Below the pieces are notes generated by a model. The model worked only from the letters and a program-made list of their open reading frames with translations. It was not told the origin of the DNA and did not search any database. A program made the position numbers and the translations under genes. A DNA stretch of 64,000 bases, taken from assembly GCA_016490735.1 (NCBI GenBank), contig JAEMWC010000252.1, positions 111,001 through 175,000 of the forward strand. Reading direction: 5' to 3'. Numbering within the stretch: position 1 is the first letter of the stretch; the number at the start of each line of letters is the position of its first letter. This document shows positions 34,007 to 51,949 of the stretch, one piece after another. Origin of the DNA: Pachyseris speciosa (taxonomy: Eukaryota; Cnidaria; Anthozoa; Scleractinia; Pachyseridae).

Positions 34007-34069
34007 AGTAGTATAGTGTTTGGGGGTACGAAATCAATTGATTTCGTTTTCCCCAAACACTATACTACT
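34007..34069. repeat. 63-bp palindrome at the viral left edge
   Basis: Outer arms AGTAGTATAGTGTTTGGGG and CCCCAAACACTATACTACT pair exactly; the centre GAAATCAATTGATTTC is itself a perfect dyad. Only four or five bases between arm and centre fail to pair. It lies exactly at the host/virus junction. Confidence 0.85.
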
Positions 34070-34090
34070 CACCTTCTGGTCTCGTATTCT

Positions 34091-34190
34091 GGAATATATA
34101 GTTATTTAATTTGATGGAATATATAGTTATTTAATTTGATGGAATATATAGTTATTTAATTTGATGGAATCTATAGTTGTTCAATCTGAT
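34091..34190. repeat. Four 25-bp tandem repeats in the viral terminus
   Basis: Three identical units GGAATATATAGTTATTTAAT+TTGAT and a fourth with four changes. Immediately after, GCGTGACATTCTCGGAAAA occurs twice (about 34219 and 34248). Short terminal arrays of this kind are common in Polinton termini; the role is unknown. Confidence 0.85.
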
Positions 34191-34980
34191 GGAACCAAGG
34201 TCAGCACACTTCATAAAATGCGTGACATTCTCGGAAAAATCACCAAGCGTGACATTCTCGGAAAACAGGGAATGAGTCATCGCTATAGCTGCAGAAAAAA
34301 AAATAGCAAAACTGGTGGCCACCAGAACCTCTCATGAGGGACTTAATTTGGAATTTGAATCACCACCCGTCCCTCATGAGAGGTTTTTTTGTTTTGTTTT
34401 TTTGAATTCCCACCACCACACCACCAGAGCTCTGGCCCTATCAGACCCTCTTGGGGCCAATTATTTGTTTTTTTCACCCTCCGGCTTGAGATTGGACCGG
34501 CACTTCTGTCAAGCCTAAGCCTAAGCTTCACTATAGCTCTACCCAACAATCCGACACCATCTAAGGGTGATTTTTTATTTTTCATTTTTTATTTTTCATT
34601 TTTTTATTTTTAATTTTTTTATTTTTCATGTTTTATTTTTATTTTTATTTTTCAACCCATGGAATAACGGCGGGGTTTTTTCGTTATTCCACGGGGTGGC
34701 TTGTATACATTTCGCTAACGAAAGGCCCCCGCTTTTTCCAATCGTTAGATACTCTGTATACAAGCCACACTTTATCTGTGTGAAACAACCCTTATATTTT
34801 CGTTTGTATTTTCATTTTTATGCTTGTGGTACATAAATGAAATTTACAAAGATAAAAAATAATACGCATGTGTAAAAAGCGAAAAATCTGACGTAGTTTG
34901 ATGACTCATTCGAAAGGGAAACCCCCCAAAGAGGGCAGTATTTTAAAACTCACAAAAATCATATGGCGTGACGTCAACAG
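34191..34980. other. Viral left non-coding region with hairpins
   Basis: No gene. Three dyads are visible: CCTCTCATGAGGGAC (34327) with GTCCCTCATGAGAGG (34370); GGAATAACG (34661) with CGTTATTCC (34682); and GGCTTGTATACA (34699) with TGTATACAAGCC (34754). A long T/A homopolymer-like tract spans about 34567-34652. The last may be a terminator for the minus-strand polymerase transcript. Confidence 0.55.
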
Positions 34981-37900
34981 CTAGATTTCATAATGTCCAT
35001 AAGCATAGCTTGTCACGCCATTATCATGAATATACCGCTTGTCGTCAAAGCAGCTGAGTGATACTTTATTTATCTCATAACTTCCAAGTTGATGGTTCTG
35101 ACTTCTGATTGTTTTCATTCTATGATGCATCTGTTTATTATCAAATAGTGTCTCTTTATAATTTTCATGTTTGATGTTATTCTTAATAATATTCTTACTA
35201 ATACCTTTTGCTGTCTTCCCTCCTTTCTGATCATCTTTAATATAGCTATACATCTTCGATCTCAGTCCTACGAATTCACATATTGGGACTCCAGCAGCCT
35301 CATCTTTCATCTTACCAATCACTTTCTTATTGGTCTTATCGGAGAATGGCGAGCTTTCAGGATAGTCACTGTTATCGAATTTATTTTTATCCTTCCAGAA
35401 ATTTCTATAGATGTCATGGGTTCCAATTTCATAGGTCAGTGAGTCTGTGTCTGTGAATAATAATTTTGCTTCATCTCCATATTTCTCTTTGATGTAGTTG
35501 TAATGGAAATCGTACATCAGTGTCTTGCTAAGGTCTAGAATACACATCCCCACATATGCTGGCCGGTTTAAAGTAAGTGTTTCTTTTATCTTATGAACAG
35601 CTACTAGATTTTCATTGAAGATTTTACTGCTAACATATGTCGGTTTAGCAGCCATTTTCAATAGCTTCTTCTCATTAGTCACCAATCTGACGTCTACTCG
35701 CTTTCTGAGGTTTTCCATCGTTTTGCCAAATACACTGTTATTCATCAGCTTGAAAAAGTCTTTCTCAAAGGCATTTTTAGCATTCTTACGTTTTTCAGTA
35801 TTGAAATCAATATATTGCCTAAGCCACGCGGACTGATTGAATTCTAACACTCGATGGATTTTAGTTATTTTCAAACCGAGATCAGTATATAATTGGAGGT
35901 TCCTATAATGGAGCACGTATTTTTCTTTGTTGCTTAATGTTGGTATTAGTTTATGTACCAGACCAGTTGATATATTGTATTTCTTTGCTATGTTTTTACA
36001 ATAATCTGATAGCATGTCCCCAGTCACTTTAATCTTTTCCGGCCCAAGTGGGTAGTCATTATGTAGATCATGTAACTCTTGGGGGTATTTGAGGTCAACT
36101 TCAAGTATCAAACCCTTTGCACTATCTTCTTTATAGACAGCCAGGTCTAACTTGCTGATCCGCTTTTCTGTCAACCATTTGAAACCACCGGTTGGTAAAT
36201 ATTGACTCATAGCCCAACCATACAAATTATTAGCATCAAGATACACGATGTACTTCGAGGGCGCCTTCTCGTCATACTCTTTCATGTATTTATTATTTGC
36301 TTTACCGTAACGGTTGGCTATATAACTGATACCACCACGTAGGCCCTTTTCAATGAATTGAAACATATCAATGTCTGTCATCAATTCTAATTTTATGTCA
36401 GTCATTTTAAGCATGGCGTCCCAAGATAAACCGGGAGATGTGAAATAGTGACACGGGTCCAGTTTATAGTACTCAAGGCATGTTTTTCTGAAGTTTTCAA
36501 ATACATCAGCCAGTAGGAGTACATCTGTTTTAAGGTACAGATCATGATAATCACCCATGTTTTTCAAAGAGAATGTTTCCCACACTGTCTGAGCATGTGT
36601 GTAGTCTTCATCTGATATATGCGTATCACTCAGTATGCTATAGAATTCATCTTTTGATGGCAGCTTCTGATTGAATTGATCGAAACTGTCCATGTAGTCG
36701 TAAGGATAAACACCTTTCTGCGCCATCAGATTAAGATCCTTTCCCTTGAACTCTTGTGAGGTGTATTTTAAGGCTTCTTTTGGTAGATTGCCTACAAGTT
36801 TTTCCAAACTGGAGCTCATGAACTGGAAACTATCAATGAAGGTCAAGTGGTTGCCAAGCATGAAAGCCATATACTTCTCCATGTTATTTGGGATAGCATT
36901 GATATTCATTTGACAGTCTTCACCTTTCTTGTTTTTGTAAGTGTGCTTCTTAACAATGGCTCCAATCTCCTGCATAATAAAATGACTATCATAGCCTCTC
37001 AGATTGTGGAATATAACAGGTATTTTTATTTCTTCTGGGTTCACTCTGAGTTTCAGATTACAATCTTGGTGAGCAGAACCTCTATACTTGCCGGTAATGT
37101 GACAATGATCTCGGACTCTAATATCCTTTTCAGTATATTTCTTATCACAGATGTGACAAACTTTGGCTTTTCGGAATTTCTCTTCATCATCTTTAGTCAT
37201 TTTCAATGGTTTGTTAAAATTTTTTTTCACAACATTCTTGCAATATTTGACCTCCTCCAGCATAGCTTCCATAAATTTGTACACAGCCTTTTCACCCCTG
37301 TATATTGCTGCTGGTTTGCTGTATTTATCATCATAACAACAAACCACTTTATAGCCGTAGCCACAGTCAGTATGCTTCTGATAAGCCTCTGTATATGATT
37401 TATCACTGTTGGGTTGGCAACCGTGTATTTTTTCAGTGATGGCCTCAAAATCAGCATAGATCACAAATGGTACCTGCTGTTGTTTATGAAAGTTGTTGAA
37501 TTTCAGTATGTTGTTATCTTTGTTTGGCATTTTTATTGCCTGTGTGCCATTTACTTGCATGCAGTTGCCCTTGTGATCATTCAGAACCCTTTCAGAGCTG
37601 AAACACTGTAAGCAATGCATACAAAAGTGTTTTCTTTCTTTGTGCTTTGTTTGATTGTACATAAACTTATTGAAATCTTTGATCAGCACATAATGCTTGT
37701 TTTCATTTTCAGTTATTAGAAGCAGATTCAAGCAGTCTGCATATTTCTCTTTTGATACATATATTGGATAAGGTTGTTTCTCCTCATAACCGAATACATT
37801 GATGTTGATCTCATTTTGTTTTTCAATCTTATTGTAATGTTTGGTAGTCACTGGAAATTCAACCCCTGAATAATCTAATGTATTGACAAATTTTCTGTCA

Positions 37901-38472
37901 GTCTTCTTTATTCTCTGTGGGTATTTCTCTTGTGGGTTCAGGTGTCTGATGTGGCACCATCGGAAGCATTCATTATCCTCATTTTTCAAGTTAATTAAAC
38001 CCTTTGCACTGTTTCTGAGTTCATTCGGTAGTTTAATGTATGAGGAGCCCTTCATTGGCGCATATTTCACAACATTGAGGTAATGGCTGTCAACAGATTC
38101 AATTGTCCAACCTGAACCTTCAGATACCCAAACTGCAATCTTATTCATTATTTGGTCTTTTGACAACTGTAGTGATTCAGTTACTTCCAGATTATTCACA
38201 ATTGTTTGAGCTACACTGTTGAAATATGCGGTTTTAAACTCTAATTGTCCATCAGTCATTTTTACAAATGTTACCTTTAGCGTTTCAACGAATTTCAGTC
38301 CTTTCATTTCATTCAACGATTTTATAATATTATATGCAACAGCCTTTCTTGTGTTTTGCAGTTGCGCAAGCGGGTCTTTGTTATTTTTTATACTGATTTC
38401 AAAAGATTTTGTGAAACCTTTCAGAGCTTTCTCTGTTTGCTCTATTTTTGTTCTGGGTGTTGGAACCGGCAC
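34981..38472 (-). CDS. polB: Protein-primed family B DNA polymerase of the viral element
   Basis: Replicates the viral genome from a protein primer. The 1163-codon frame shows: a zinc-finger-like CMHCLQC...HKGNC at about 284-304; exonuclease motif I ADFEA at 340-344; an endonuclease VII-like Cys/His cluster at about 439-471 (CHIC, DHCH, HQDC); Exo II FHNLRGYDSHF at 488-498; Exo III YHDLYLKTD at 642-650; polymerase motif A LDANNLYG at 745-752; motif B NNSVFG at 911-916; motif C DTDS at 1008-1011. All catalytic acidic residues are present. The frame opens with GTG at 38472; its N-terminal Pro-rich PVPTPRTK continues upstream in frame, and a related Pro-rich reading lies in another frame at 38442-38780. 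The natural start is therefore probably at 38780 with a frame break near 38492. Confidence 0.93.
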   Translation of the reverse strand: MPVPTPRTKIEQTEKALKGFTKSFEISIKNNKDPLAQLQNTRKAVAYNIIKSLNEMKGLKFVETLKVTFVKMTDGQLEFKTAYFNSVAQTIVNNLEVTESLQLSKDQIMNKIAVWVSEGSGWTIESVDSHYLNVVKYAPMKGSSYIKLPNELRNSAKGLINLKNEDNECFRWCHIRHLNPQEKYPQRIKKTDRKFVNTLDYSGVEFPVTTKHYNKIEKQNEININVFGYEEKQPYPIYVSKEKYADCLNLLLITENENKHYVLIKDFNKFMYNQTKHKERKHFCMHCLQCFSSERVLNDHKGNCMQVNGTQAIKMPNKDNNILKFNNFHKQQQVPFVIYADFEAITEKIHGCQPNSDKSYTEAYQKHTDCGYGYKVVCCYDDKYSKPAAIYRGEKAVYKFMEAMLEEVKYCKNVVKKNFNKPLKMTKDDEEKFRKAKVCHICDKKYTEKDIRVRDHCHITGKYRGSAHQDCNLKLRVNPEEIKIPVIFHNLRGYDSHFIMQEIGAIVKKHTYKNKKGEDCQMNINAIPNNMEKYMAFMLGNHLTFIDSFQFMSSSLEKLVGNLPKEALKYTSQEFKGKDLNLMAQKGVYPYDYMDSFDQFNQKLPSKDEFYSILSDTHISDEDYTHAQTVWETFSLKNMGDYHDLYLKTDVLLLADVFENFRKTCLEYYKLDPCHYFTSPGLSWDAMLKMTDIKLELMTDIDMFQFIEKGLRGGISYIANRYGKANNKYMKEYDEKAPSKYIVYLDANNLYGWAMSQYLPTGGFKWLTEKRISKLDLAVYKEDSAKGLILEVDLKYPQELHDLHNDYPLGPEKIKVTGDMLSDYCKNIAKKYNISTGLVHKLIPTLSNKEKYVLHYRNLQLYTDLGLKITKIHRVLEFNQSAWLRQYIDFNTEKRKNAKNAFEKDFFKLMNNSVFGKTMENLRKRVDVRLVTNEKKLLKMAAKPTYVSSKIFNENLVAVHKIKETLTLNRPAYVGMCILDLSKTLMYDFHYNYIKEKYGDEAKLLFTDTDSLTYEIGTHDIYRNFWKDKNKFDNSDYPESSPFSDKTNKKVIGKMKDEAAGVPICEFVGLRSKMYSYIKDDQKGGKTAKGISKNIIKNNIKHENYKETLFDNKQMHHRMKTIRSQNHQLGSYEINKVSLSCFDDKRYIHDNGVTSYAYGHYEI

Positions 38473-38780
38473 AGGCTTTTTGGTTCTAGGGCGGGCATAG
38501 GTTTCTTTTTCAATTGTTCTATTTCATCCAGCCACTCTGCAGGTGGAGCTGGTAATCTTTTTCTCTCAAAATAATCAACTAATTCTTTCACAGTTGGTCT
38601 TTTCGTCCTTGGGGCGGGAATTGGTCTTGTTCTTGGTTTAGGCACAGGTTTTGTGTCATCAACTATAATAACTTTAGGCTTTTTCTGCTGCTTCAACAAC
38701 AACTCGATTAGCTTAGATTTGCTCAATTTTTTAAGACTTTTCTTGTCCATATTACTACTAGTTTCGATAATTTTTTCCAT
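38442..38780 (-). pseudogene. Detached N-terminal segment of the viral DNA polymerase
   Basis: A 112-codon ATG-started frame with a Lys/Leu-rich start (KLSKSKLIELLLKQQ, SAP-like in look) and two Pro-Arg repeats (KPVPKPRTR, PIPAPRTK). Its last 14 codons overlap the polymerase frame in another phase, and the same PxPxPRTK repeat continues in the polymerase frame. This points to a single-base frame break near 38492 in a C-rich run that split one long N-terminus. Alternative: a separate small protein that overlaps the polymerase, which I consider less likely. Confidence 0.6.
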
Positions 38781-38847
38781 TTATAATGTATCTATAGTTA
38801 TTATTTCTTTAATACATTTCCGTCTGCGTTTAAATATGGTTGAGAAT

Positions 38848-39081
38848 TCAATTGATCCAATTACTGGATCCTTTTGAATTGTAATTATTGAAGAATATTT
38901 TTTGATGTTTTTTTGTTTTAATATGACAAGATTTTCCTGCCATTGTGTAGTTACGTCCTGTCTTACATATGTTACAGTACCATTCTTTATTTAGCATATA
39001 GGTAGTCTTGTGTTTTTTTCTTTCCTCATCACTGAGAACTCTAGGCCTTCCACGACCTCTTTTAACATTTTTATTTTCCAT
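38848..39081 (-). CDS. Small AT-hook and C2H2 zinc-finger protein
   Basis: 77 codons. N-terminal AT-hook-like KRGRGRPRVLS, then YCNICKTGRNYTMAGKSCHI...KKHQ, a single Cys2-His2 finger. Probably binds viral DNA as a regulator or architectural protein (inference). ATG at 39081 with an AT-rich leader; 67 bp separate its stop from the polymerase N-terminal frame. Confidence 0.75.
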   Translation of the reverse strand: MENKNVKRGRGRPRVLSDEERKKHKTTYMLNKEWYCNICKTGRNYTMAGKSCHIKTKKHQKIFFNNYNSKGSSNWIN

Positions 39082-39115
39082 ATAATATATATATATATTT
39101 TATTTTTATATCAAT

Positions 39116-39955
39116 TTAATTTTCTTTTAAATCTTTCCTTCGTGATAAGTATAATTTGCTTTCTTCCAAGTGTTTGGTTATTTCATAAATAAGGTCTTCG
39201 AAACAATTGCTCATGATGTACTTACACTTATTTTTCTCATACATTTGCTTCATACTTTTTTGTTTATCTGACACTTGATACACACCAGTTGGACTTTTGA
39301 ATTCAAGACATAGAGCATTGTATCTTCTAGTGGGATTCAACAGCATTAAATCACACTGACCAGCCATATATCCTTTGTTATAACTTCTGATTCTCATATT
39401 TGAGCTTATTTGATTTTCACCTAGACCGACAATCATTAAAGCATCTTCATATTTTTTTCTGATGAATGATACAATCTTGCAGTGCAGATCATTTTCACTT
39501 TCAATCATCAGCATGTTATTACTTCTATCATTGAACTGTTTGTAATATCCCTGTTTCCTGATTGATGGTAATACTTTCGATGTAACCCAATGTTTGAATT
39601 TTACTGCTTCCTGTTTTTTAGAGGACAGTATTAGTGAATAAAGTCCAGATTCATTTATGAAGAAACATTTGAAAGTTTTTTCGGGGGTCTCAGCACGAGG
39701 GACCATTTTTGTCCCCCGTGAATCAGTGGCCTCAGCACGAGGGACCATTTTTGTCCCTCGTGAATTTATGCTGATTTTGTGGTCTCTTAAGATTTTATCA
39801 TCCGATACAACATAATCTCTGATTGCTCTTTGTGGATTTTTATAGTCAAGAATTTTAGCAATGTCTCTTCCTCTGAACCATATTTCATTTTTATCATCAA
39901 GATAGCAATCTATTGATACATCTAATTCTTTATTATCGTAGGAATATTTTTGCAT
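39116..39955 (-). CDS. BRO-N domain protein with VRR-NUC-like C-terminal domain
   Basis: 279 codons. Residues about 1-130 resemble the BRO N-terminal DNA-binding domain of large DNA viruses and phages (WFRGRDIAKILDY, ESGLYSLILSSKK, FKHWVTSKVLPSIRKQGYY). Residues about 155-255 resemble a VRR-NUC/Holliday-type nuclease core: GYMAGQCDLMLL then LCLEFKSPTG and SDKQK, giving D, E-x-K and Q at the expected order. The fused layout suggests a DNA-binding nuclease, with function in replication or recombination inferred. Between Bro-N strands there is an in-frame duplicated SRGTKMVPRAE segment (residues about 64-90) encoded by two GAGGGACCATTTTTGTCCC hairpins, likely a short mobile insertion. No frame break. 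Confidence 0.75.
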   Translation of the reverse strand: MQKYSYDNKELDVSIDCYLDDKNEIWFRGRDIAKILDYKNPQRAIRDYVVSDDKILRDHKISINSRGTKMVPRAEATDSRGTKMVPRAETPEKTFKCFFINESGLYSLILSSKKQEAVKFKHWVTSKVLPSIRKQGYYKQFNDRSNNMLMIESENDLHCKIVSFIRKKYEDALMIVGLGENQISSNMRIRSYNKGYMAGQCDLMLLNPTRRYNALCLEFKSPTGVYQVSDKQKSMKQMYEKNKCKYIMSNCFEDLIYEITKHLEESKLYLSRRKDLKEN

Positions 39956-40104
39956 TTGTATATTATATTATAATAATTTATTTTTTAATTCATTTTCGAC
40001 CTGTGTTTAAATATAGTCAGGAATAATAATATTCTTGGCTACATAATAGCAAATAACAGATATACTGTAGGTCTCCTTCACATATATGTTAGATAATTTT
40101 CTCT
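39956..40104. other. Viral intergenic spacer
   Basis: About 150 bp of AT-rich DNA between the integrase stop and the BRO start codon. No ORF. Confidence 0.5.
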
Positions 40105-41054
40105 TTATAATATATCTTTTAAATCCTTGAACGGTATCCAACTGTTAAATTCGTCACTGTAACCCTTCCACTTCACCAAAGCTTGTTTTTTCTTATAGTC
40201 TCTGCGAATGACTTTATCAATACGGAATACATCCTGTCTGGCTTTCAATAATTCAGCTTCATAAAAACTCCCTTCAATATCTTCATCGTTGAGATCTTTT
40301 AGTTTGTATGTTATTGGATTAGTGTATTGGATTTTATCAACTGTAAACACTTCTTCAGTCCAATTTGGTGTATAGCCCTTGTCGAACACATTCCGTTTAT
40401 ACTTGGATATTCGGACCTTATCACCTATTTTAAATTTCGGTTTCTGTTTTAATGTTTTCATATCACCATACAAATTGAAGTAAACAGTTCCTTCATTCCT
40501 CTTATCAGATGCTTCAACGGGTGTCATCTTTGTGCTTGAATGTTTGGTATTATTATACTGTTTCACTAATTTTGGTAACATGTCTAAATACTGTGTATTA
40601 CCTTGAACAGTGAACTGCTTCCACATTTTGGATTTAATTGTCCTATTCCATCTTTCAACTACTGATGACTTCTCTTCATTCTCAGTTGAGTACATCTGTA
40701 CACTATGTTTCTCTAGCAAGTCCTTCAAGTGTTTGTTGTAAAACTTTTTCCCTTGTCGACCCATAAATACTGTGGTTTTCTGCCTTCCTTGAATATTGAT
40801 TTGAATGCTTCAGTGACAGATTCACCTTTCTTATCCTTCAATGGGACAATCCAACCATATTTGCTGAAGACATCAATGACCATAAGAAGATATCGATAAC
40901 CTTTATTCCATTTACTGAACTGTTGCATTTCAACTAGATCACTTGCCCATATTTCATCAATTTTATTTACAATCACACGCCGCCGAGTGAAATTTCGTTT
41001 TATGGGTGCATGTAATTCATCAGCTAGTTTTTCTTGCCAGTTTTCTTCACTCGA
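40105..41054 (-). pseudogene. Retroviral-type (RVE) integrase with chromodomain, frameshifted
   Basis: Inserts the element into host DNA. Two overlapping frames hold one protein. The first (from about 41054, with no ATG; a GTG lies at 40976) includes ELHAPIKRNFTRRR, the first catalytic Asp in IWASDLVEM, YLLMVIDVFSKYGW, and the second Asp in LWVDKGK. Near 40747, in an A-rich run, the reading moves to the second frame (40105 onward), which holds the catalytic Glu in SSVVERWNRT, the SH3-like C-terminal domain and a terminal chromodomain (ALVKWKGYSDEFNSW). All three DDE residues exist, but the frame break should inactivate the copy unless it is a sequencing error. The N-terminal part overlaps the end of the PLA2-like gene in another frame. 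Confidence 0.85.
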
Positions 41055-41662
41055 CGGCTTTTTCCGTTTTTTGAAACACCAAGACCAAGTTTCTGTTTTT
41101 TGTCGATTAAGAATCTAGCTGTTTGACCCCATTTTGGCATCTCACCATATGGTATTTGATCTAGTGACTCGACCATTGTTCTATCACAATCGCCTTTATT
41201 TTTTCCCATATCATAACAAATATCATGGTAAGCTGCTATTTCATCTACTTTATTGTAAGGCAGGACATTCCATTTTGTGACCTCACCTGTGTTTTTATCA
41301 TACTCTAACTGTTTATCGAGGGGATTATAAGGTCCCATGTATTTATACTTTCCGGGTGTCCATCCACTTTTTGGTTTAGGAAGCTTGCCAATAACCTTAT
41401 GAATGTCAATACCTTTGCCATAATCTAATCCTTTGATATCTGTTTTGTAACGAATATTTGGTCTCACTTTTGTTGAGAGTTGTTTTAAAGCTTCTGACCC
41501 AACCTTTGTGATTGCAGGCTTTGCGAGGGAAAGTCCTTTGTCAATTAATTTCTTTTGCAGCTTTGGATTTCTCATTGCTTCTGATGCATAATATCTTCCC
41601 ATTTCTACACCTTTCTTCGCTAAATAAGGGACTCCATGTTCCAAGAATCCTGTTAGTGCCAT
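41024..41662 (-). CDS. PLA2-like domain capsid protein
   Basis: 212 codons. The C-terminal half carries a parvovirus VP1-type phospholipase A2 signature: calcium-loop-like YMGPYNPLD at 108-116 and the catalytic His-Asp in EIAAYHDICYD (His146-Asp147) with a second conserved Asp in GDCDRTM. In parvoviruses such a domain breaches the endosomal membrane; the same role here is inference. A basic, Lys-rich C-tail follows. ATG at 41662 is used, but the frame is open about 24 codons further upstream (through SPSEGAGILDSAAD, which looks protein-like) into the preceding zinc-ribbon gene without an ATG. The true start may therefore be spliced or non-AUG. Confidence 0.8.
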   Translation of the reverse strand: MALTGFLEHGVPYLAKKGVEMGRYYASEAMRNPKLQKKLIDKGLSLAKPAITKVGSEALKQLSTKVRPNIRYKTDIKGLDYGKGIDIHKVIGKLPKPKSGWTPGKYKYMGPYNPLDKQLEYDKNTGEVTKWNVLPYNKVDEIAAYHDICYDMGKNKGDCDRTMVESLDQIPYGEMPKWGQTARFLIDKKQKLGLGVSKNGKSRRVKKTGKKN

Positions 41663-41706
41663 ATCTGCTGCCGAATCTAGTATGCCCGCCCCTTCAGACG
41701 GGCTAA

Positions 41707-41865: not shown

Positions 41866-41877
41866 TATACATATTGG

Positions 41878-42291
41878 TTAGATATTCTTGAAATAATTTA
41901 TGATAAACCTGTGATTGACTCTTGTGTCTGTTGGATTAAATTCAGCATTATGTATTGTATTAAGAATGGATCTCCCATTTTGTCTCTCGAGAAGATAGTA
42001 CAAACACCAATATCCACACAAGACTGAATCTCTTTCTTGTATCTCATCTCCAGAGTATTCAAGTTGTTTTCCACTTGTAGCCATGTATTTCTGTACTTCT
42101 GTTGGCATCATTAAACCAAATGAGTCAAAGTATTCACAGTATCTATCACCAATTCGATAACATACCCAGTGAGTACCAGGTCCAATCTTACTGTCAAGAT
42201 TGACTATTCCACATTCATTGTTTTTGATTTGTCTAGGAAGATTGTCTCTTGAAAATACTCCTCTGAAATGTTTTATTCCAAGTTGTTTCAC
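41878..42291 (-). CDS. Adenain-like cysteine protease (virion maturation)
   Basis: 137 codons in the C48/C5 Ulp1-adenain fold. Catalytic His41 in GTHWVC, Asp56 in EYFDSFG, a Gln near 85 and nucleophile Cys92 in SVLCGYWC. Processes capsid precursors in related viruses. The called start is GTG at 42291; the frame is open further upstream (VNKPLSNFDLINW, convincingly part of the family's N-terminus) and overlaps the end of the core-protein gene in a different phase, without an ATG. So the start is uncertain: lost ATG, splicing or non-AUG initiation. Confidence 0.88.
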   Translation of the reverse strand: MKQLGIKHFRGVFSRDNLPRQIKNNECGIVNLDSKIGPGTHWVCYRIGDRYCEYFDSFGLMMPTEVQKYMATSGKQLEYSGDEIQERDSVLCGYWCLYYLLERQNGRSILNTIHNAEFNPTDTRVNHRFIINYFKNI

Positions 42292-42322
42292 CCAATTGAT
42301 TAAATCAAAGTTGGATAAGGGT

Positions 42323-43177
42323 TTATTTACAAAATGGTTCCCAGAATTGGGATTGAATTGAATGGACTGTTTTTGCCCAGTAGAAGTCCTTTTCCTTTGG
42401 TTTTTCTTTTTTTTTCATTCCCATGCCTATTGGGTTATCCCATGTACCAAAAACAGGAGGGGATTGCCATGGAATCATAGCATGTTTCCCACCACTTTTA
42501 TTTTTTGCAATGGAATCTGGAACATGAACTGGTAATGACCGTCTTGGACGGCTGCTTTCAACATGCAAACCTTTTCCAGTTAATTTTCTAATTGCTTCTA
42601 TGGCCAAGGGAATTCCAATACTGGCGAGTATTGTTCCAATACCCTTTCCAGTCTGCGCTTTTGTTGGTTTTATAACAACGTCTCCACCATACTGCATTTT
42701 TTGAATAATATCTGCCATCTGTCTCGTATTCAATAAATTTCCTACATTCAATAATTGGGATAAATTGGCATTAGGAATAAGAAATCCTCCTTTTTGTTTC
42801 TTCCCAAATAGTTTATCAACACCGAGACTTGCTAATGAAGAAAGAGCACCTGTAGCCAATGCTGGAGCCGCTTTAGCTACTGCTTTACCTGCATATAGTC
42901 TTGTTCCAAGTGAAAAAAGACTGGACCAAAGAGAGCCTCCTTCTACAACAGCTTTTCTGATTTGTGATTTTGATATTTTGATGTCTGAACCTTTTCCTGA
43001 TCTACTTGATTTAATCAGTTTGTTGATTTGTGTCTTAGTCAACATTAGTTGATCATTTCCAGACAATTCACTATGTGTCAACCTGATTGTTACAGGCGAA
43101 TTTGTTGCATAAGCTTTTGCTAGCTTTTGTTTCTGACCCTGTGAAAGTTTCACTCCATGAGGATGATAAGTAGTCAT
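42323..43177 (-). CDS. Virion core protein (adenovirus pX-like)
   Basis: 284 codons, ATG at 43177. Basic N-terminal third with MLTKTQINKLIKSSRSGKG and ISKSQIRKAV, a Gly/Ala-rich hydrophobic centre (APALATGALSSLASLGVDKL), a Gly-rich segment with QYGGDVVIKPTKAQTGKGIG, then a second hydrophobic run (ILASIGIPLAIEAI) and a Pro-rich C-terminus. This composition matches the pX-like or membrane-active core proteins described for adintoviruses. Exact role (DNA condensation or membrane interaction) is inference. Its end overlaps the open frame of the protease. Confidence 0.65.
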   Translation of the reverse strand: MTTYHPHGVKLSQGQKQKLAKAYATNSPVTIRLTHSELSGNDQLMLTKTQINKLIKSSRSGKGSDIKISKSQIRKAVVEGGSLWSSLFSLGTRLYAGKAVAKAAPALATGALSSLASLGVDKLFGKKQKGGFLIPNANLSQLLNVGNLLNTRQMADIIQKMQYGGDVVIKPTKAQTGKGIGTILASIGIPLAIEAIRKLTGKGLHVESSRPRRSLPVHVPDSIAKNKSGGKHAMIPWQSPPVFGTWDNPIGMGMKKKEKPKEKDFYWAKTVHSIQSQFWEPFCK

Positions 43178-43304: not shown

Positions 43305-44588
43305 TTACATTGATCTCAGAATTAATTTTCCATCAGTCTTTCTCATCTCAATATCCTGCTCATAGAGGACCAGTGCATACACACTGTAATCAGCATTTGT
43401 TGCAGCACTCAAAGTGTATTTGAAAGTCAGTTTTGTCATTCCATCTTTGATATCCTGTTTCTGTTTTGTCAGATCGAAATAAACAAAAGGGAATATTGTA
43501 CCGAAATTGCCCCTGTTGAGAAGGGTACTTTCACTGAAATCATTTACAGCTTGAACATATTTCAAAACATCTCTAAATACTCTTGTTGGTTCTGTTGATG
43601 GTTTATAATGAACCTCTGGATAATCATTACCATTGCCAACCTCAAGATAACAATCAGTCAAAGTTTGGTTATTTGCAACTGAAAAGGTGTTATAGAGAAA
43701 TTTATTGGCTGTCTGAGATGCATCATTGGCATCATTGATGATGAATACAAAAACATGCCTGGGTTTGTTTATTCCTGTGGAAATACGGAAATTGGCAGTC
43801 TGTTGTCTTGTTGAATTGCCTCTCTCAACCATTTCTCTCATGTAAGTCCACTTTCTGTTGTCAAGATACTTGCTCATGTATAAGGACTTTCCCGTAGAAT
43901 TAAAAATAATACGAGGAACAATTAGCTGGAATTTAGTTAGTACCACACGACATTCATCAGTAGCTTGCCAAATCATATTGTCATCACTCTCAAGTGTCAG
44001 ATTCACCTCTACTTTTGAGTTAGGCATGAGTTCATCCCAAAAGCTCTTGAAAAAACCGTATCTGTTCAATGCTATCTCTGCATTTACAGAAGCATTTGCA
44101 CCATCCAACAGATTCTTTCTTGTAAATCCTTTGTTATAAGCAGCTTGTGCTACTCTGTTTTCAGCGCCTCTACTGGTGTCAAGATAGAAGAACTCATTGG
44201 TTCCCTGACTTACAGCATAACCCTGTGAATACTCAAGCAATGACTTAATATTTGTGGCTTGGTTTGCATTACGGCATTCATAAACATCAAGACCATTCAT
44301 TTTTACATTAATGGTGTTAATAAGAGCGTGAACTGAATTAACAATACCATTTCGATCTGCAGCAGCAATGTCACCTCCATCTGCAAGCTTTTTTACAATG
44401 AAAATAACATTAAAACGGGCATTATACCAGTCAAATGGTGTAGTCTCTCCACTGTTATCAACAACGAAACGGTAACCTGTTTTCCTCTGATGAGCACCGT
44501 GTGCTACAACAGTATTAAGTGCTGTCTCTAGTTCGAACACTACATCTTCATATCTTTCGATATATTTTGAGTCACGATAGTTTGACAT
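43305..44588 (-). CDS. Major capsid protein candidate (double jelly roll, hexon-like)
   Basis: 427 codons, ATG at 44588, no break. Predominantly beta-type sequence with features expected of Polinton/adintovirus major capsid proteins: an early TPFDWYNARFNVIFIVKK strand, a central segment with FFKSFWDELMPNSKVEVNLTLES, FQLIVPRIIFN, and a C-terminal FKYTLSAATNADYSVYALVLYE. Length and position between the penton and core genes fit. It builds the icosahedral shell. The TCTAAC leader motif is at 44599-44605. Assignment rests on family resemblance and context, not a single catalytic motif. Confidence 0.82.
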   Translation of the reverse strand: MSNYRDSKYIERYEDVVFELETALNTVVAHGAHQRKTGYRFVVDNSGETTPFDWYNARFNVIFIVKKLADGGDIAAADRNGIVNSVHALINTINVKMNGLDVYECRNANQATNIKSLLEYSQGYAVSQGTNEFFYLDTSRGAENRVAQAAYNKGFTRKNLLDGANASVNAEIALNRYGFFKSFWDELMPNSKVEVNLTLESDDNMIWQATDECRVVLTKFQLIVPRIIFNSTGKSLYMSKYLDNRKWTYMREMVERGNSTRQQTANFRISTGINKPRHVFVFIINDANDASQTANKFLYNTFSVANNQTLTDCYLEVGNGNDYPEVHYKPSTEPTRVFRDVLKYVQAVNDFSESTLLNRGNFGTIFPFVYFDLTKQKQDIKDGMTKLTFKYTLSAATNADYSVYALVLYEQDIEMRKTDGKLILRSM

Positions 44589-44610
44589 ATATTATTGTGT
44601 TAGATAAAAG

Positions 44611-44853: not shown

Positions 44854-44866
44854 ATACTATTAGGTT

Positions 44867-45652
44867 TTATAATTCCACACCTCTCAAGAATAACTCAATA
44901 TACCAATCTATCCCATTTAAATCGACTGGAGCTCTAGAAGAGTCTGTGACATAAAAGCGTATTGAGCTGATTGTGTGTGTTGAGACAGGATTCCATGAAA
45001 GAAAACGAGGTTTGTAAGTGAAAGGTAAACTTCTAACGAGATCTGTGACTGGTATAACTGCGATTGTATTTGTGCTATTGCCATCAACAATGCTATCTAT
45101 CACCATATCACAATTGATATAAATTTCATCTACTCCTCTTGTAATATCAGGTAGATTTGTTCCATATTCTGTGGCTGGAACTAATTTTGAATCGAAACCG
45201 ATAAGTTTTCTGAAATCAAGATTTCTCAGATCCACTCGATAGTTTTCATCAAGTTCAATCAAAATGCGATATGTTGACAAAACGAAATACATGTTAATAC
45301 CATACAGGAATTTTGATTTGTCTGTTTCAGATGGATTCAGTACATGGTTATTTTTTCTCATATACTCATGAATGTAACTATTGATATCGTCGTATGAATA
45401 CATCCCGTTAACGAATGTTATTGTTTCCCAGTTTACACCTTTGTCATAGCTGTATTTAATTTGATTATTCCCAAAAATATCTCTGATATTGTACCAACTG
45501 TATGTCAGATTGATAACATTCACAGCCATTTCATATTTCAAATCATTCGTTAATTTAAGAGGTGTATTGAATCTTTTTTCAAAATCATGACTCTTACTGA
45601 CACCAATTTTGTCTCTGTTTTTACTGTTGAATCGTAATGAAATTTCTGTCAT
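44867..45652 (-). CDS. Penton (minor capsid) protein candidate, single jelly roll
   Basis: 261 codons, ATG at 45652. N-terminal MTEISLRFNSKNRDK, then a beta-rich body (YEMAVNVINLTYSWYNI, SYDKGVNWETITF, LLNP-type loops) and a C-terminal strand pair ending DWYIELFLRGVEL. Size, position next to the major capsid protein and absence of other motifs fit the penton protein of Polintons. The TCTAAT leader is at 45663-45669. Confidence 0.78.
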   Translation of the reverse strand: MTEISLRFNSKNRDKIGVSKSHDFEKRFNTPLKLTNDLKYEMAVNVINLTYSWYNIRDIFGNNQIKYSYDKGVNWETITFVNGMYSYDDINSYIHEYMRKNNHVLNPSETDKSKFLYGINMYFVLSTYRILIELDENYRVDLRNLDFRKLIGFDSKLVPATEYGTNLPDITRGVDEIYINCDMVIDSIVDGNSTNTIAVIPVTDLVRSLPFTYKPRFLSWNPVSTHTISSIRFYVTDSSRAPVDLNGIDWYIELFLRGVEL

Positions 45653-45658
45653 ATACTT

Positions 45659-46525
45659 TTACATTAGATATTTCATCATTATTTTATTTAGCTCACCGGT
45701 TTTCAGGATTCCCAGTCTGTTCAATGTATGCAATATTTTTGTGAATTCATTTTGAACATTTTTGCTGTTGTTGCCGGCTGAAATAGATCCACCAAGTAAC
45801 TGTAGTCTTGAAAGCATGTCACCCAAAAATGCATCCCTTGAACCCATTGCACCTCTTCTCCTTCCCATGCCTGAACCAATAGTTGATGCACCTTCCTCAA
45901 CGGCGCCAATTCTTTTTCGGTACTTTTGCATTAGTTTTATCCTTTGAGTTAATTCATATATCTTATCTTTGTTTTTATCCCTATTTGTTTTGGTTGTTGA
46001 TAGATGAGCTTTTTGTCTCCCAAGTTGTTTGGTTATTTCACCAATATTTTTGTTATACTTGTCGATGTCGATTGTACCATCCATTATCCTATTTAAAATT
46101 GTTGTTGGAGGAGACAATTCATATTCCTGTAATACCTTAACCTCATCAAGTGAGAAACCTTTGTCAAGATTTGACTTATACTTTGGTTCTGTTTCAGTCA
46201 TCATTTTAGGTTTGTAATCAATTGGTAATGTTGTTTTCATTGGTACTGATTCAGGTAACGTGTTTAATAGCATAAGATCTTCAAAACCAGATGTCAAGGC
46301 TTTTTGATTCTTTTTCAACTGTTCAATAACTTCATCCTGTTTTTTGTCAACACTTTCTTTCACACTCTTCTGGACATCAATAGAGGGTTTCAGCAATTCT
46401 GATGTTGTATCATATGCATCCTGTTTTCTGTATTCATAAGTCTTGATAACATCACGAACTTCTCTAGTTTTATTTCCAGCTTCAATTCCACTTTTAAGAA
46501 GCCTTTTCATTCGTTCTATATCCAT
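45659..46525 (-). CDS. Coiled-coil virion-associated protein of unknown function
   Basis: 288 codons from the ATG at 46525 (an upstream TTG at 46531 is in frame but not needed). Rich in Lys/Glu/Gln heptad-like stretches: DIERMKRLLKSGIEAGNK, SVKESVDKKQDEVIEQLKKN and QRIKLMQKYRKRI; then a Gly/Arg-rich GSGMGRRRGAMGSR segment. First gene of the leftward set, next to the divergent promoter. A gene of this type between penton and ATPase recurs in this virus group as I know it; the function is unassigned. Confidence 0.7.
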   Translation of the reverse strand: MDIERMKRLLKSGIEAGNKTREVRDVIKTYEYRKQDAYDTTSELLKPSIDVQKSVKESVDKKQDEVIEQLKKNQKALTSGFEDLMLLNTLPESVPMKTTLPIDYKPKMMTETEPKYKSNLDKGFSLDEVKVLQEYELSPPTTILNRIMDGTIDIDKYNKNIGEITKQLGRQKAHLSTTKTNRDKNKDKIYELTQRIKLMQKYRKRIGAVEEGASTIGSGMGRRRGAMGSRDAFLGDMLSRLQLLGGSISAGNNSKNVQNEFTKILHTLNRLGILKTGELNKIMMKYLM

Positions 46526-46561
46526 ATACAATTGTGTTAGACTAATCTAAACTATTTACAT
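46526..46561. promoter_or_regulatory. Divergent viral promoter
   Basis: Only 36 bp separate the ATGs of the leftward coiled-coil gene and the rightward ATPase gene. It holds two copies of the recurring leader motif, one per strand: GTCTAAC on minus (46536-46542) and ATCTAAA on plus (46545-46551), each 10-20 bp from its start codon. So it must act in both directions. Confidence 0.6.
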
Positions 46562-47200
46562 ATGGAAATCCCTAATTATGATATTCAGGGTTCAAAGAAT
46601 TCATTCAGACAGTTGTATCCGTATATGCCAAAAGACACTTTCAGGATGCTGCTGGCTGGTCATTCTGGATCTGGAAGGACAACATTGTTCATGCATCTGA
46701 TTATGGAACCGTTGGTCTATTATGATCAGATACATCTTTATGCAAAAAATTTGGATCAAGACAAGTACAAATATCTTCGGAAAGTAATAGATGAAATAAG
46801 CAGTCACATTGGATATCCTGCCTTGGTTTGCAGTCAAGAAGAGATATTGCCAGTTGAACAAATAAAAGACACAGATTTGCAGCGATTGGTTGTTTTTGAT
46901 GATTTTGTCACTGACAAGAAACAAGATCAGATAATCAGCTATTTCATTCAGGGGAGACACAAGAACTGTTCAGTCATATATCTCACACAATCATTCTATG
47001 GCTGTCCAAAATCAATCAGACTCAATTGCAGTCACTTCTGCCTTTATGATTTCCCATCCTCAAGAGAAAGGAACTTGATTGCACAAGAACTTGGAATAGA
47101 CAAGAAGAAATACATTGAAGCCACCAAGAAACCTTATTCCTTCTGTTATGTTGACAAGCCAATGAAAACAATCAAGAGGAATTTTTATGGTGCTGTTTAA
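46562..47200 (+). CDS. Genome-packaging ATPase (A32/FtsK-HerA type)
   Basis: 212 codons. Pumps viral DNA into the capsid in relatives. P-loop GHSGSGRTT at 33-41, Walker B VVFDDF at 110-115, and a sensor-like YLTQSF at 140-145, with the length normal for Polinton ATPases. Oddity: the P-loop Lys position is Arg (codon AGG), a change that usually abolishes ATP hydrolysis. It could be decay of the integrated copy. ATG at 46562 follows ATCTAAA. First gene of the plus-strand set. Confidence 0.9.
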   Translation: MEIPNYDIQGSKNSFRQLYPYMPKDTFRMLLAGHSGSGRTTLFMHLIMEPLVYYDQIHLYAKNLDQDKYKYLRKVIDEISSHIGYPALVCSQEEILPVEQIKDTDLQRLVVFDDFVTDKKQDQIISYFIQGRHKNCSVIYLTQSFYGCPKSIRLNCSHFCLYDFPSSRERNLIAQELGIDKKKYIEATKKPYSFCYVDKPMKTIKRNFYGAV

Positions 47201-47216
47201 TCTAATCTAATATTAT

Positions 47217-47456
47217 ATGGCAATCAATAATTTTCAAAATCCAGAAAAACAGGAGAATCCCAGAACAGAAAGAATCGAAAAATTGATCAAACCTGACGCT
47301 GCTGTTGAAACACCATTTGAAATCGCTGAAAAAATCAAAATGGAAGTATACAGGAGGACACAAAAAGTATTGAAAAACAATAACAGACTACCTGTCATCT
47401 ATGAAACCATACCACCTGAATTCTTGGAAGATGAAAGCAGTGATGAAGAAGATTAA
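47217..47456 (+). CDS. Small protein with acidic C-terminus
   Basis: 79 codons; ATG at 47217 preceded by AATCTAAT. Helical, charged middle (PFEIAEKIKMEVYRRTQKVL) and an acidic tail (LEDESSDEED). No known domain recognised. Tight spacing (16 bp after the ATPase stop, 17 bp before the fibre start) makes it a genuine viral gene. Confidence 0.65.
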   Translation: MAINNFQNPEKQENPRTERIEKLIKPDAAVETPFEIAEKIKMEVYRRTQKVLKNNNRLPVIYETIPPEFLEDESSDEED

Positions 47457-49823
47457 TCTAACAAGATGATATAATGGGAGTTTTCAATTCTCCACTAGAT
47501 CAAGATGAAACAAAAACTGGTGAAAGAGGCCCTGCTGGTCCAATTGGTCCCAAAGGTGATAAAGGTGATAAAGGTGAAACAGGTGATGGATTTAGATTAA
47601 CACAAGATGGCAATTATGATATTGAAAATAAACGTTTGACAAATGTTGGTGATCCAGTAAATCATTATGATTCTACTAACTTGGGATATGTCAATGATGC
47701 TGTTTTATCAATTGAAGGAACACGTGTTAATCCATTTAAATTTCTTCTTGAAGATACATCAAAAACAACTATTCTAAGAAATGCGAATAATCTACAATTA
47801 GAAGTCTATAATGAAAGCCCTTACTCAATAAATAAAAAAGCCTTGTCTTTTGTTATTCCTTCTGCTGGTCTTACAACTGTTCTTCGTTTTGATTTGTCAC
47901 AATTGGAAGTTTCAAAGTACACTTTAGTTGTTGAGTTTTATACTGATGGTAATCCAAACAATGCAACAGTTGATGATGACAATTTGTCATCAAATTTAAT
48001 TGAAAGAAAGGATTCAATAAAAAGAGCATTTCCAAAGACTCATCTTGTTGATGGTTCCACATCAATGGAGTTATTGTTGATTTCACCATATTTACAAAAT
48101 AATAAAAAACATCATGTCATAGTTTATGGTGTTTATGGATTTTCTAATATCATTTTATCACATATTCACGACCCAGCTTTTGAAATAGAAGAAGGAAGAA
48201 TTGTATTTAATAATGAGGTTAAAATGAGTTTTCATAGAATAGTCAATGTTGGACGCCCTATACTTCCACAAGACTGTGCAACTAGAAAATACGTTGATGA
48301 TGGTGTAATAGGTAAAGCTGATAAAACATATCTCAATAATAACTTTGTGAAAAAAGATGGAAGCGTTGCAATGACTTCTGATTTGAATCTTGGAGGTAAC
48401 AAATTGACTAATGTAGCAGCGCCAACAGCAAACAATGATTCAGCCACAAAGGGGTATGTTGATACTGAAATTGCTGGAATTACTGGCATTGATGTTTCAC
48501 CATTTCTTAAAAAAGATGGAAGTGTTGCAATGACCGGTGATCTTGTCATGGGTGACAATAAAATAACAAATGTTGGATCTCCAAACTCTGATAAAGATTC
48601 TGCCAACAAAAAGTATGTTGATGACCTTGTTCTTTCAGTATCTGGTACTCAACGCAACCCATTCGCTTTTCTGTTGAAAGATATTTCCAAGTCAACAGGG
48701 ACACAAAATGTTAATAGCCTCCAAATTGAAGATTTTAACAGATCACCATATCATATCAACAAGTCATCATTGTCTTTTTTGATTCCAACAAGTGGCAGAT
48801 TTACATCCAAAATTCGTTTTAATGTGACATCATTGAGAAATGGACTGTATACATTTGTTACAGAGTTTTACTCACCATCAGACCCACACCAAGTCACAAT
48901 TGGGCTTGATCTTCGCACACTGAACATACGTGAAGCCGGACAACCGTTTCAACAACCTTTTCTTAGAACCCAGCATGTTGATGGTTATATGAAGAAGGTT
49001 TTCCAAATCGAAAAAACTGGTGGTGGTCAAGCGTCAATTGAGGTTATACTTATAGCCACAGCTCCATCTATTAACATCAAAACACATATCATCGTTTATG
49101 GGGTATATGGCTATCATACCAATTTATCTTACTTTGTTCATGACCCAGCTTATGAAATTAAAAACGGTCAAATTGCGTTTGGTGGTAATGTTGACATGAA
49201 ATTGAACAAGATCATCAACCTACAGGATAACCCCTCAAACCCACAAGACGCTGTAAACAAAAGTTATGTGGACCAGAGGTTGCAAACCAAACTCGATGCG
49301 ATTGCACAACAAAATCTGAATATGAACAACAATGCCATTACTGATCTTGCTCCACCTGTCAACGCAGACGATGCGGCGACAAAAAGGTATACTGACGAAT
49401 ATTTTCTTTGACGAGACGGTTCGACTGCGATGTATGGAAATTTGTCGATGGGTGGAAATAAAATGACGAATTTAGCGGACGTGGTGAATGAAACTGATGC
49501 AGTGAACTTTAGAGTTTTAAATAGAGCTTCACAAACTATCAGAGCAAACACTTTATTATTGAATGGAACAAATGCGATGGCAGCAGACTTAAAACTTGGA
49601 GGGCATAAAATCATTAACTTAAAAGAAGGAACAAATAAAACCGATGCCGTAAATTTAGATCAATTAGAAAAAAGTCATATTTCATCTGCTTCTCATCCAA
49701 AGAATGCTTTCAAATATTTGATGAATGATATCGATGAAATTAGCACTGAATATGGCTTGACAGTTAATGGATATGTCAATTTACCTCGTTCACCACATTT
49801 GATTTCAAAAAAGGTCATTGATG

Positions 49824-51521
49824 CACAGGGTGCAGAGGAGTTCTGTTCGATCGTAAACGACAAAGTCTCACCTCGTTAATTCCAAAATGTGTTTGCTTTG
49901 TACGATAAAGATTGTCGAAATGAAATCCTTCTGATTTGTGAATGTTTTCTGCTTCCATATCCTTCTATATCCCCCGATCTTGTCTCTCTCGTACGGCTTT
50001 CCGCCATGTTTACTTGCATATACCGCGTCGAACTGACGCTGGCCGCGGACGCATATGATCTTTGCCCGAAGGGCAACGAATAAGCTTCGGAAATCGAAAG
50101 CGAAGCTTTCCGAACGAGGCACGAAGTGACGAGTAAAAGAAGAGTAAAGGGAGGAAACAAGCGTCACGTGACTAGTTCGATGTGAACCGCAATAACTGGT
50201 GACGGAAGTGGGCAGTGACCGGAAACGGGAGAGTAATCTCCCGTTGGGGAAGGATAAAAACATGGCAAGTTTTTCTTTCAAAAGGCCAGCTCCGCTCAAT
50301 GAAAACCCACCGCAGGCAAAAAAAAATCGAAACTGTCCACCAGGGAAACACAAATTGAGCTAGACAGACTAGATAGCCAGCAAATACTAACAACACGTTT
50401 ATTCAACGAGGTCACAACATATACCCTTCAAACAATAGCTAACTAATAATTAAAACAATTCTCACGCTTCGACAATTCTCAGCAAACCTTCGAGCATCAA
50501 AGTCTCCTCCTTTTCTGAAAACGTCCGACGCATGTGTCGAATGTTCACTTGTCTATGACATGATCTCGAATATAGTGGTCTTCTCTATCACCGAAGCCCG
50601 GGCACCGAAGTCACGGCTAACCGCACGCTGGCGAAGCCGACAAACAAACTGATCAACGGTTTCACTGATTTCTTGTGCAATCTGCAGAAACATGTGCCTC
50701 TCAAACAGAACGTTTGCCTTTGGAACGAAGTAGTCATCAAGTGTCTGCGAAACCAGTGTTTCTAACGAACCGACACCTAGGGAAACAGAAATGCTTCCAA
50801 CACTTCCCGACTCGCTGGTTGAACCACTAGCGTTAGCTCCGCTCATCTCGCCGCCGCTTATAAACCGCCGTTGAAAAGAGAAAAATCTCGACAAATACCT
50901 CCACGAAACCGCGAGTGAAAGAGAACGATCCTTGTCGCTTACTGTAGAACCCCGAAACACAAATAGAGACCGCCAGCGAGTACTTCCAACACGTTTATTC
51001 TTCGAGGTCACAACACACTATACGTCATTTCCGTCACCAGTTGTTGCGGTGCACATTGAACGAAAGCGGTGTGATGAGGCCGTAAATCTCCTTTGCCAAA
51101 AATGTTACTTTTCCGACCGTTTCAACAGAATTCTTGTTCAATTTGGCTAAAAAGTGAAAATTCCAAACCATATACGAAAAATGAGACGTTTTCATTGAAT
51201 TTCGTGTCAGATACAGGGAATCGAAAAATTGAGCCTAAATCGGTTTCCTCCCTTTTCTCTTCTTTTAGTGTAAGCCACCGTTTCGTAACCTTAGAAGCCC
51301 ACGATACTTTGGTCCGCGGTATATGCAAATAAACATGGCGGAAGGAGCCGTACGAGAGAGACAAGATCGGGGGATATAAGAAGGATCTGGAAGCGAAAAA
51401 CGTTCACAACTCAGAAGGATTTCATTTCGACAATCTTTATTTTACAACGTAAACATATTTTGGAATTAAAAAGGTGAGACTTTATCGCGTACGATCCAAC
51501 AATACTCCTCTGCACCCTGTG
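49824..51521. mobile_element. TIR DNA transposon (1698 bp) inside the viral fibre gene
   Basis: The ends CACAGGGTGCAGAGGAG and CTCCTCTGCACCCTGTG are exact inverted complements, and both are flanked by the 7-bp direct repeat ATTGATG (49817-49823; 51522-51528). The inverted repeats extend inward for about 380-490 bp with small differences (to about 50215 and from about 51030). The interior holds a gag-like fragment and two similar AACACGTTTATTC..CGAGGTCACAAC words about 595 bp apart (50391, 50986). No transposase frame. The CAGGG terminus hints at hAT or P-type elements, but 7 bp is atypical for both; superfamily left open. Confidence 0.85.
50553..51011 (-). pseudogene. Gag-like fragment of an LTR retrotransposon
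   Basis: The C-terminal part of a 152-codon frame reads LDDYFVPKANVLFERHMF, then ETVDQFVCRLRQRA, closely in the style of Gypsy-type Gag capsid domains. The N-terminal part (Ser/Gly-rich) is not recognised. It sits between the inverted repeats of the transposon and is flanked by two similar words at 50391 and 50986, possibly remains of LTR or cargo ends. Confidence 0.45.
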
Positions 51522-51949
51522 ATTGATGTAGACTTGAATAAAGAAGCTAATCATATTTACAGAGCTAGAATTGGTTTTAAGATGTACACAATAAATGATG
51601 GAAAATACACTTTTATTCTCGAATGGCTATTTCCTGATTATGAAGGAATGAGTCTTAGTAGTGTAACATTCAGTGCAACTGGTGGAATTACAATTCATAA
51701 AACTGTAGGGAGAAAATTTGATAACAGAAATGAAGATCATTCGAGATATTTATTATGGATTGAAAAACCTTCAGTAAGTTCACCACCTGAATATTTATAT
51801 TGTACGATTCATATTAATGCTAACCCAACTTATCCAAATAAGTACAAAGTTCATTGTGTTGCATATGGTATTGATTTTGAAGCTGTAGACGTTCCATCAA
51901 GTGTTTACGACTTCACAGAGGCTTATAATGAATCATAAACTGGATCGGC

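What the first reader, a model, noticed from the sequence alone, without database searches (positions are those of the whole stretch)
34007..51938. Large, nearly complete Polinton/adintovirus provirus in a cnidarian-like genome
All hallmark modules are recognisable in 18 kb: protein-primed PolB, RVE integrase with chromodomain, adenain-like protease, packaging ATPase, capsid and penton candidates, PLA2-like and pX-like proteins, plus accessory BRO-N/VRR-NUC and a collagen-like fibre. The left edge can be fixed to the base by comparison with an uninterrupted flank copy at 10190.
Basis: partly seen in the sequence, partly recalled or inferred. Interest (0 to 1): 0.8.

Follow-up and report, generated by a model that had tools for sequence, protein, structure and literature searches.

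The report
Amplified Polinton with frameshifted integrase gene
This is a decayed copy of a virus-like mobile element (a Polinton) present in many hundreds of copies in its animal host's genome, and its integrase gene appears to be read only when ribosomes slip back one base at a site like those retroviruses use.

Summary
It is not nearly complete. [quoted passage not shown] The window copy stops near 51928 inside the fibre gene, carries a 1.7-kb transposon there and has broken frames. One coding junction has 1119 matches in the genome.

The unexpected part is integrase expression. Its frame overlaps PLA2 in the -1 frame and has no AUG before its first catalytic Asp. The overlap carries a textbook -1 frameshift signal (A AAA AAC in PLA2 phase, 7-nt spacer, 13-bp stem) in 24 of 27 copies read; the other three showed no integrase in the piece read. 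Integrase-frame constraint is seen downstream of that site, not upstream. This predicts a PLA2-integrase fusion made in the manner of Gag-Pol. The protease likewise has no AUG before its core unless fused to the pX-like protein. Some termini are 63-nt palindromes of one fixed orientation.

The parts
34007..51928 (.). Polinton copy: left terminus to the point where homology with other copies ends (truncated; full copies are about 20 kb)
34007..34069 (+). 63-nt palindromic left terminus (AGTAGT...ACTACT)
   Evidence: DNA fold -25.9 kcal/mol, z -11.6; same terminus at host junctions of other copies
34090..34194 (+). 25-bp tandem repeats next to the terminus
   Evidence: the same repeat follows other ends printed
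34981..38307 (-). Family B DNA polymerase (Polinton type); an N-terminal extension up to 38780 lies in another frame
   Evidence: 7993 homologues, best 84%; tblastn of P0243
38848..39099 (-). Small basic protein, possible C2H2 zinc finger
   Evidence: best Pfam finger hit E 0.96 only
39116..39955 (-). BRO-N protein with weak VRR-NUC similarity
   Evidence: 1.7e-25 and 0.0045; PHROG anti-repressors
40105..41114 (-). Integrase frame: rve core 40728-41114, chromodomain part 40105-40809; broken between the two in this copy; first in-frame AUG at 40928
41066..41072 (-). Slippery heptamer A AAA AAC in PLA2 phase
40979..41058 (-). Predicted 13-bp stem (arms 41058-41046 and 40991-40979, 54-nt loop), 7 nt after the heptamer
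41024..41662 (-). PLA2-domain protein; its 3' end overlaps the integrase frame by 91 nt
   Evidence: PF08398 9.1e-8
41878..42414 (-). Adenain-like protease frame with no AUG before its core
42323..43177 (-). pX-like basic protein upstream of the protease
   Evidence: position and composition
43305..44588 (-). Major capsid protein, double jelly-roll
44867..45652 (-). Penton protein (probable)
45659..46525 (-). 288-aa protein, function unknown; divergent from the ATPase across 36 bp
46562..47200 (+).
47211..47456 (+). 81-codon frame
47474..51928 (+). Phage-like fibre gene (T7 tail-fibre and YadA-stalk similarity): in-frame stop after 49411, transposon insert, truncated end
49821..51522 (.). Non-autonomous transposon insert with inverted repeats and 7-bp duplication ATTGATG (edges approximate)
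   Evidence: the two edges abut in 7 of 7 other copies read

Best explanation
A truncated, decayed copy of a highly amplified Polinton. [quoted passage not shown] INFERRED: the family spread by extrachromosomal protein-primed replication and integrase-catalysed insertion. INFERRED with good support: integrase is not translated from its own AUG. Ribosomes translating PLA2 slip back one base at A AAA AAC, helped by the downstream stem, and make a minority PLA2-integrase fusion that could carry the integrase into the particle. The protease is probably made as a C-terminal extension of the pX-like protein, fused in some copies and in a shifted frame in others.
For: Integrase is -1 to PLA2 in 19 of 19 sampled copies that retain both (of 20 sampled) and in the window. 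PLA2 stop and first downstream integrase AUG lie at the same distances in 24 of 24 copies. Heptamer in phase in 24 of 27 copies read; C859, C17a and C17b showed no integrase in the piece read. 95 of the first 100 listed of 1119 junction matches keep it exactly. In-phase A AAA AAC occurs once in 3725 codons of nine element genes. The stem is the single best of 11445 positions, and 5 of 11425 positions have such a stem 5-9 nt downstream. Between PLA2 stop and first AUG, integrase-frame changes are 11 synonymous to 8 not (expected share 0.27, P 0.005), against 5:14 and 0:19 in the other frames; upstream of the heptamer the integrase frame shows 3:21, with stop codons changing. C13 has a different PLA2 body (32 of 60 identical upstream) but 137 of 144 identical from the heptamer on. 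Integration: 13 of 13 copies with both ends found (of 20 sampled) have identical 6-bp duplications, and 3 of 3 more.
Against: No expression data. All copies are from one genome and related. The stem shows no two-sided covariation: 98.5% of cells pair, 2 further pair types by one-sided changes, and the shuffle control has no power. Windows of 4-50, 5-65 and 5-80 nt downstream fold no better than shuffles (z -0.8, 0.7, 1.2); only 5-110 does (z -2.75, mononucleotide shuffles). The loop is long (54 nt). Between heptamer and PLA2 stop only 3-4 changes exist, so that piece is uninformative, and the PLA2 frame upstream is itself not significantly constrained (9 of 22 synonymous, P 0.15). Non-AUG starts and splicing are not excluded. 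pX-protease frames vary (-1 in 11, fused in 5, +1 in 2, unclear in 2 of 20), which may be decay or assembly error in an A-run.
Confidence: 0.82

Rival explanations
1. Ordinary Polinton in which integrase is made from a non-AUG codon or a spliced mRNA; the slippery site is chance.
For: The integrase-frame reading opens 30-42 nt before the heptamer (from the overlaps), so a near-cognate start is possible; the stem lacks covariation.
Against: The integrase frame upstream of the heptamer looks unconstrained (3 synonymous to 21 not, stop codons changing). In-phase A AAA AAC plus a stem at the right spacing is rare.
Confidence: 0.13
2. The overlap is an inherited lesion: integrase is broken in this family and spreads in trans.
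For: Many copies have broken frames, this one several.
Against: 15 of 19 sampled copies with integrase keep one open frame of 331-336 codons and one more runs off the fetched piece. The AUG-less stretch shows a synonymous excess, and diverged copies share the geometry.
Confidence: 0.04
3. Terminal palindromes show hairpin-transfer replication (parvovirus or poxvirus style) instead of protein priming.
For: 63-nt palindrome at the exact end.
Against: 18 of 18 complete palindromes read are one way round and the opposite arrangement has 0 exact genome-wide matches (one form of the inner junction only, and the count for the normal orientation did not complete). Five copies with matching duplications have no palindrome at either end. 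PolB is of the Polinton type.
Confidence: 0.03

Closest known systems
Polintons/Mavericks (vertebrate Mavericks, PMC8097293, sections 7 and 16 and passages)
   Same: PolB, integrase, ATPase, protease, major and minor capsid; 6-bp duplications; (AGT)2//(ACT)2 end motif; size within 12.7-24.6 kb; most copies degraded
   Different: Here the modules point outward from a 36-bp centre (vertebrate ones mostly inward; outward in the cane toad); integrase lies behind PLA2 in the -1 frame; some ends are palindromes
Adintoviruses (PMC11071296, passages)
   Same: Hexon-like and penton proteins, integrase with chromodomain
   Different: That paper suggests -1 frameshifts at Penton 3' ends and a similar relation for Hexon-Adenain; no PLA2-integrase frameshift in the passages seen
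Retroviral gag-pro/gag-pol frameshifting (recalled; A AAA AAC as in MMTV gag-pro)
   Same: Slippery heptamer, short spacer, downstream stem, enzyme fused behind a structural or minor protein
   Different: No reverse transcriptase found among the element's annotated genes; upstream partner is a PLA2 protein
Fibres of polinton-like viruses (PMC12220804, passages)
   Same: Phage-like modular fibre with collagen-like part
   Different: Here T7 tail-fibre and YadA-stalk similarity in an element with PolB and rve integrase; no S74 chaperone among the Pfam hits (the gene is truncated)

Membership tests
Polinton/Maverick | Polinton-type protein-primed PolB | tested here: met
   By homology only: 81-84% to the 120 listed of 7993 homologues, many with PF03175 and/or PF02945. 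Direct Pfam and PDB searches gave no polymerase hit; priming itself not tested
Polinton/Maverick | rve integrase | tested here: met
   rve 4.4e-8, chromodomain 1.3e-7; broken in this copy, one open frame in 15 of 19 others
Polinton/Maverick | DJR capsid, penton, packaging ATPase, protease | tested here: met
   Capsid and ATPase firm; penton modest; protease weak
[quoted passage not shown]
   Met by other copies: 13 of 13 with both ends found, of 20 sampled, and 3 of 3. The window copy itself cannot show it: its right end is lost
Adintovirus | Integrase with C-terminal chromodomain | tested here: met
Adintovirus | Hexon reciprocally recognisable by BLASTp with alpha/beta reference hexons | not tested
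   no named reference hexon was searched
Adintovirus | OTU-like domain in PolB N terminus | not tested
   no PolB structure predicted
Mitochondrial-plasmid PolB | PolB groups with plasmid polymerases in a tree | not tested
   no named references were at hand
Programmed -1 frameshift | X XXY YYZ heptamer in upstream phase with downstream ORF in -1 frame | tested here: met
   24 of 27 copies read, three misses with no integrase in the piece read
Programmed -1 frameshift | Stimulatory structure 5-9 nt downstream | tested here: inconclusive
   13-bp stem at 7 nt, best of 11445 positions, but no covariation, weak folding of shorter windows, no pseudoknot test
Programmed -1 frameshift | Fusion protein is made | not testable with these tools
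   needs expression data

The most novel reading that the evidence does not exclude
A protein-primed DNA virus-like element makes its integrase by programmed -1 frameshifting behind a PLA2 minor protein, and its protease as an extension of a pX-like protein, so that both enzymes enter the particle as Gag-Pol-like fusions.
Probability: 0.7. Interest if true: 0.8.

Novelty: new variant of a known kind. Interest (0 to 1): 0.68.

Why it matters
It would extend the Gag-Pol expression trick to Polintons, suggest how integrase is dosed and packaged, and support the view that Polintons form particles. It also warns that gene callers will miss or truncate such integrases and proteases. The high copy number in one genome makes selection on the signal measurable.

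Tried and rejected
Relatives in IMG/VR: MCP and PolB alignments found none; the fibre found one weak locus (L001). Phage records: no ATPase match. The terminus 19-mer had no exact match in viral or prokaryote contigs. The palindrome as a separate small transposon was rejected because other copies end with it at unrelated host DNA. Active flip-flop of ends was judged unlikely; the matching count of the normal orientation did not complete. pX-protease as a second programmed frameshift is left open because the frame varies with an A-run. Dating: left and right repeats of one copy differ by 0-4 mismatches, plus gaps in several, over 85-401 columns in 12 of 13 pairs (C255: 21 mismatches); no rate is known, so no age is given. 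A PolB tree and a pseudoknot search were not done. Searching for other Polinton families with a distant capsid protein gave 98 scored matches at 63-65% to that query, none closer. Starrett et al. 2021 is not held. 'MMTV' and the merit of A AAA AAC are recalled.
Full report
WHAT IS THERE. The window lies in a 983.7-Mb assembly of 2368 contigs (G000:C252:111001-175000). Genes from 34981 to 46525 run leftward and genes from 46562 run rightward, away from a 36-bp gap. Family searches identify a packaging ATPase (Pox_A32), PLA2, BRO-N, chromodomain and rve core. The major capsid protein has 2184 homologues, best 75%, and a double jelly-roll model. The penton candidate has 406 homologues, best 72%; its best Foldseek hits are mavirus and adenovirus pentons, but with low TM-scores, rmsd above 12 for the full-length alignments and modest model quality. 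PolB has 7993 homologues among 7996 scored candidates, best 84%. The fibre pieces match phage T7 tail-fibre and YadA-stalk families and PHROG tail fibres. Phage-like and collagen-containing fibres are known from polinton-like viruses (PMC12220804, passages).

BOUNDARIES AND STATE. The left edge is 34007. Of the seven other copies read first, three (C1259, C144, C188) showed the complete left terminus in the piece fetched. Right ends were sought in four (those three and C1024) and found in all four; the three with both ends have identical 6-bp duplications and lengths of 19.7, 20.4 and 20.0 kb. In a further sample of 20 copies, 13 had both ends found and all 13 have identical 6-bp duplications. 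The terminus motif occurs 938 + 932 times genome-wide at up to one mismatch, control 1 + 0. Among the first 100 listed hits I count 83 terminus loci, 17 of them palindromic at that stringency, and 36 pairs 16-26 kb apart, median 19.9 kb. Extrapolated from 100 of 1870 hits this is some 670 paired copies, or about 1.4% of the assembly; this is an estimate. The PLA2/integrase junction pattern has 1119 matches, control 0. The window copy is truncated at about 51928: 7 of 7 other copies continue at least 2.5 kb and 51901-55300 does not match those stretches. A 1.7-kb insert with a 7-bp duplication splits the fibre gene; 7 of 7 other copies lack it there. Integrase is broken in this copy, PolB's N-terminal extension is out of frame by comparison with one relative, and the fibre frame has a stop.

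TERMINI. The end is a 63-nt palindrome whose two arms differ at the centre. In the 20-copy sample the left ends were full palindrome 3, partial 4, none 6, not found 7; the right ends were 6, 6, 7 and 1. Two left ends differ: C255, scored none, reads as partial, and C694, not found by the stricter pattern, reads as full. So the palindrome is a variable feature of the lineage. All 18 complete palindromes read have the same orientation. The opposite arrangement has no exact match genome-wide, but that pattern covers one form of the inner junction and its positive counterpart did not complete. This speaks against hairpin transfer at each round and fits protein-primed linear replication.

INTEGRASE EXPRESSION. 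Twenty other copies were read across pX, protease, PLA2 and integrase; one (C859) lacks PLA2 and integrase. In the 19 others integrase is -1 relative to PLA2; 15 have one open frame of 331-336 codons, one (C335) is cut by the end of the fetched piece and three are broken. The first AUG lies after the first catalytic Asp in the WASDLVEM motif (the catalytic role is recalled from the rve family). The overlap is 79-91 nt. It contains A AAA AAC in PLA2 phase, spacer GGAAAAA, then a 13-bp stem with a 54-nt loop; 110-nt folds range from -17.0 to -26.9 kcal/mol over the ten distinct sequences. Six more copies chosen because they were missing from the listed junctions were read: four have the region, with substitutions around the heptamer but the heptamer itself kept, and two (C17a, C17b) showed no integrase in the piece fetched. 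Those two were not carried into the set of 25 used, so across every copy read the count is 24 of 27. Of the first 100 listed genome-wide junctions, 95 keep the heptamer exactly and 5 differ.

TESTS. In-phase A AAA AAC occurs once in 3725 codons of nine genes; 22 in-phase heptamers of any X XXY YYZ type occur. The stem scores highest of 11445 positions in the leftward module. In the 93 nt between PLA2 stop and first AUG, the integrase frame shows 11 synonymous of 19 changes (P 0.005), the other frames 5 and 0 of 19. Upstream of the heptamer the integrase frame shows 3 of 24, the PLA2 frame 9 of 22 (P 0.15) and the third frame 7 of 22; the diverged copy C13 differs from the window at 28 of 60 upstream positions and so can contribute much of that. 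So the integrase frame looks constrained where only a frameshift, splice or odd start could have it translated, and not upstream of the heptamer. Against this: no two-sided covariation, poor folding of the nearest 46-75 nt alone, few changes inside the overlap itself, and shared ancestry of all copies.

PROTEASE. In 20 other copies the 3' end of pX and the protease are in the -1 relation in 11 (several with further breaks in pX), fused in frame in 5, +1 in 2 and unclear in 2; the window copy is +1. In 0 of the 15 unfused copies, and not in the window, does an AUG precede the conserved core. The junction is a variable A-run, so decay or assembly error can mimic frame changes; I do not claim a second programmed site.

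LITERATURE. 'Polinton' with 'ribosomal frameshift' gave two papers: one suggests frameshifts at Penton and a similar relation for Hexon-Adenain (PMC11071296, passages), the other mentions frameshifting for a tombus-like RNA virus (PMC12567637, passages). A wider search (listing only) showed no title or abstract start on a Polinton integrase frameshift. PMC8097293 was seen in outline, sections 7 and 16, and passages. PMC11071308 was seen as abstract and part 1 of 3 of section 5. Absence from print is claimed only for these searches; most subscription papers are not held.

Noticed in passing
window 39681-39764: A 42-nt unit repeated in tandem inside BRO-N, adding 14 residues in frame per copy; one copy holds a perfect short hairpin (CACGAGGGAC/GTCCCTCGTG), the other the same with a mismatch.
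   Followed up: no
window 34326-34385 and 34696-34768: Two further strong hairpins in the left non-coding region, the first followed by a T-run; with the terminus they are the only three in 34000-52400 in the scan (score 12 or more, loop up to 70, AT-only arms left out).
   Followed up: partly
window 8400-33000 and 55000-64000: Tandemly duplicated region with frames that look by eye like 7TM receptors, and a reverse-transcriptase-like frame at 27908-29395 (no family search).
   Followed up: no
L101 (G000:C13:714800-716400): A copy with a very different PLA2 3' part upstream of the same frameshift cassette and integrase, suggesting module exchange near the junction.
   Followed up: partly
window 46526-46561: Only 36 bp separate the two outward gene modules, so a shared bidirectional promoter is likely.
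   Followed up: no
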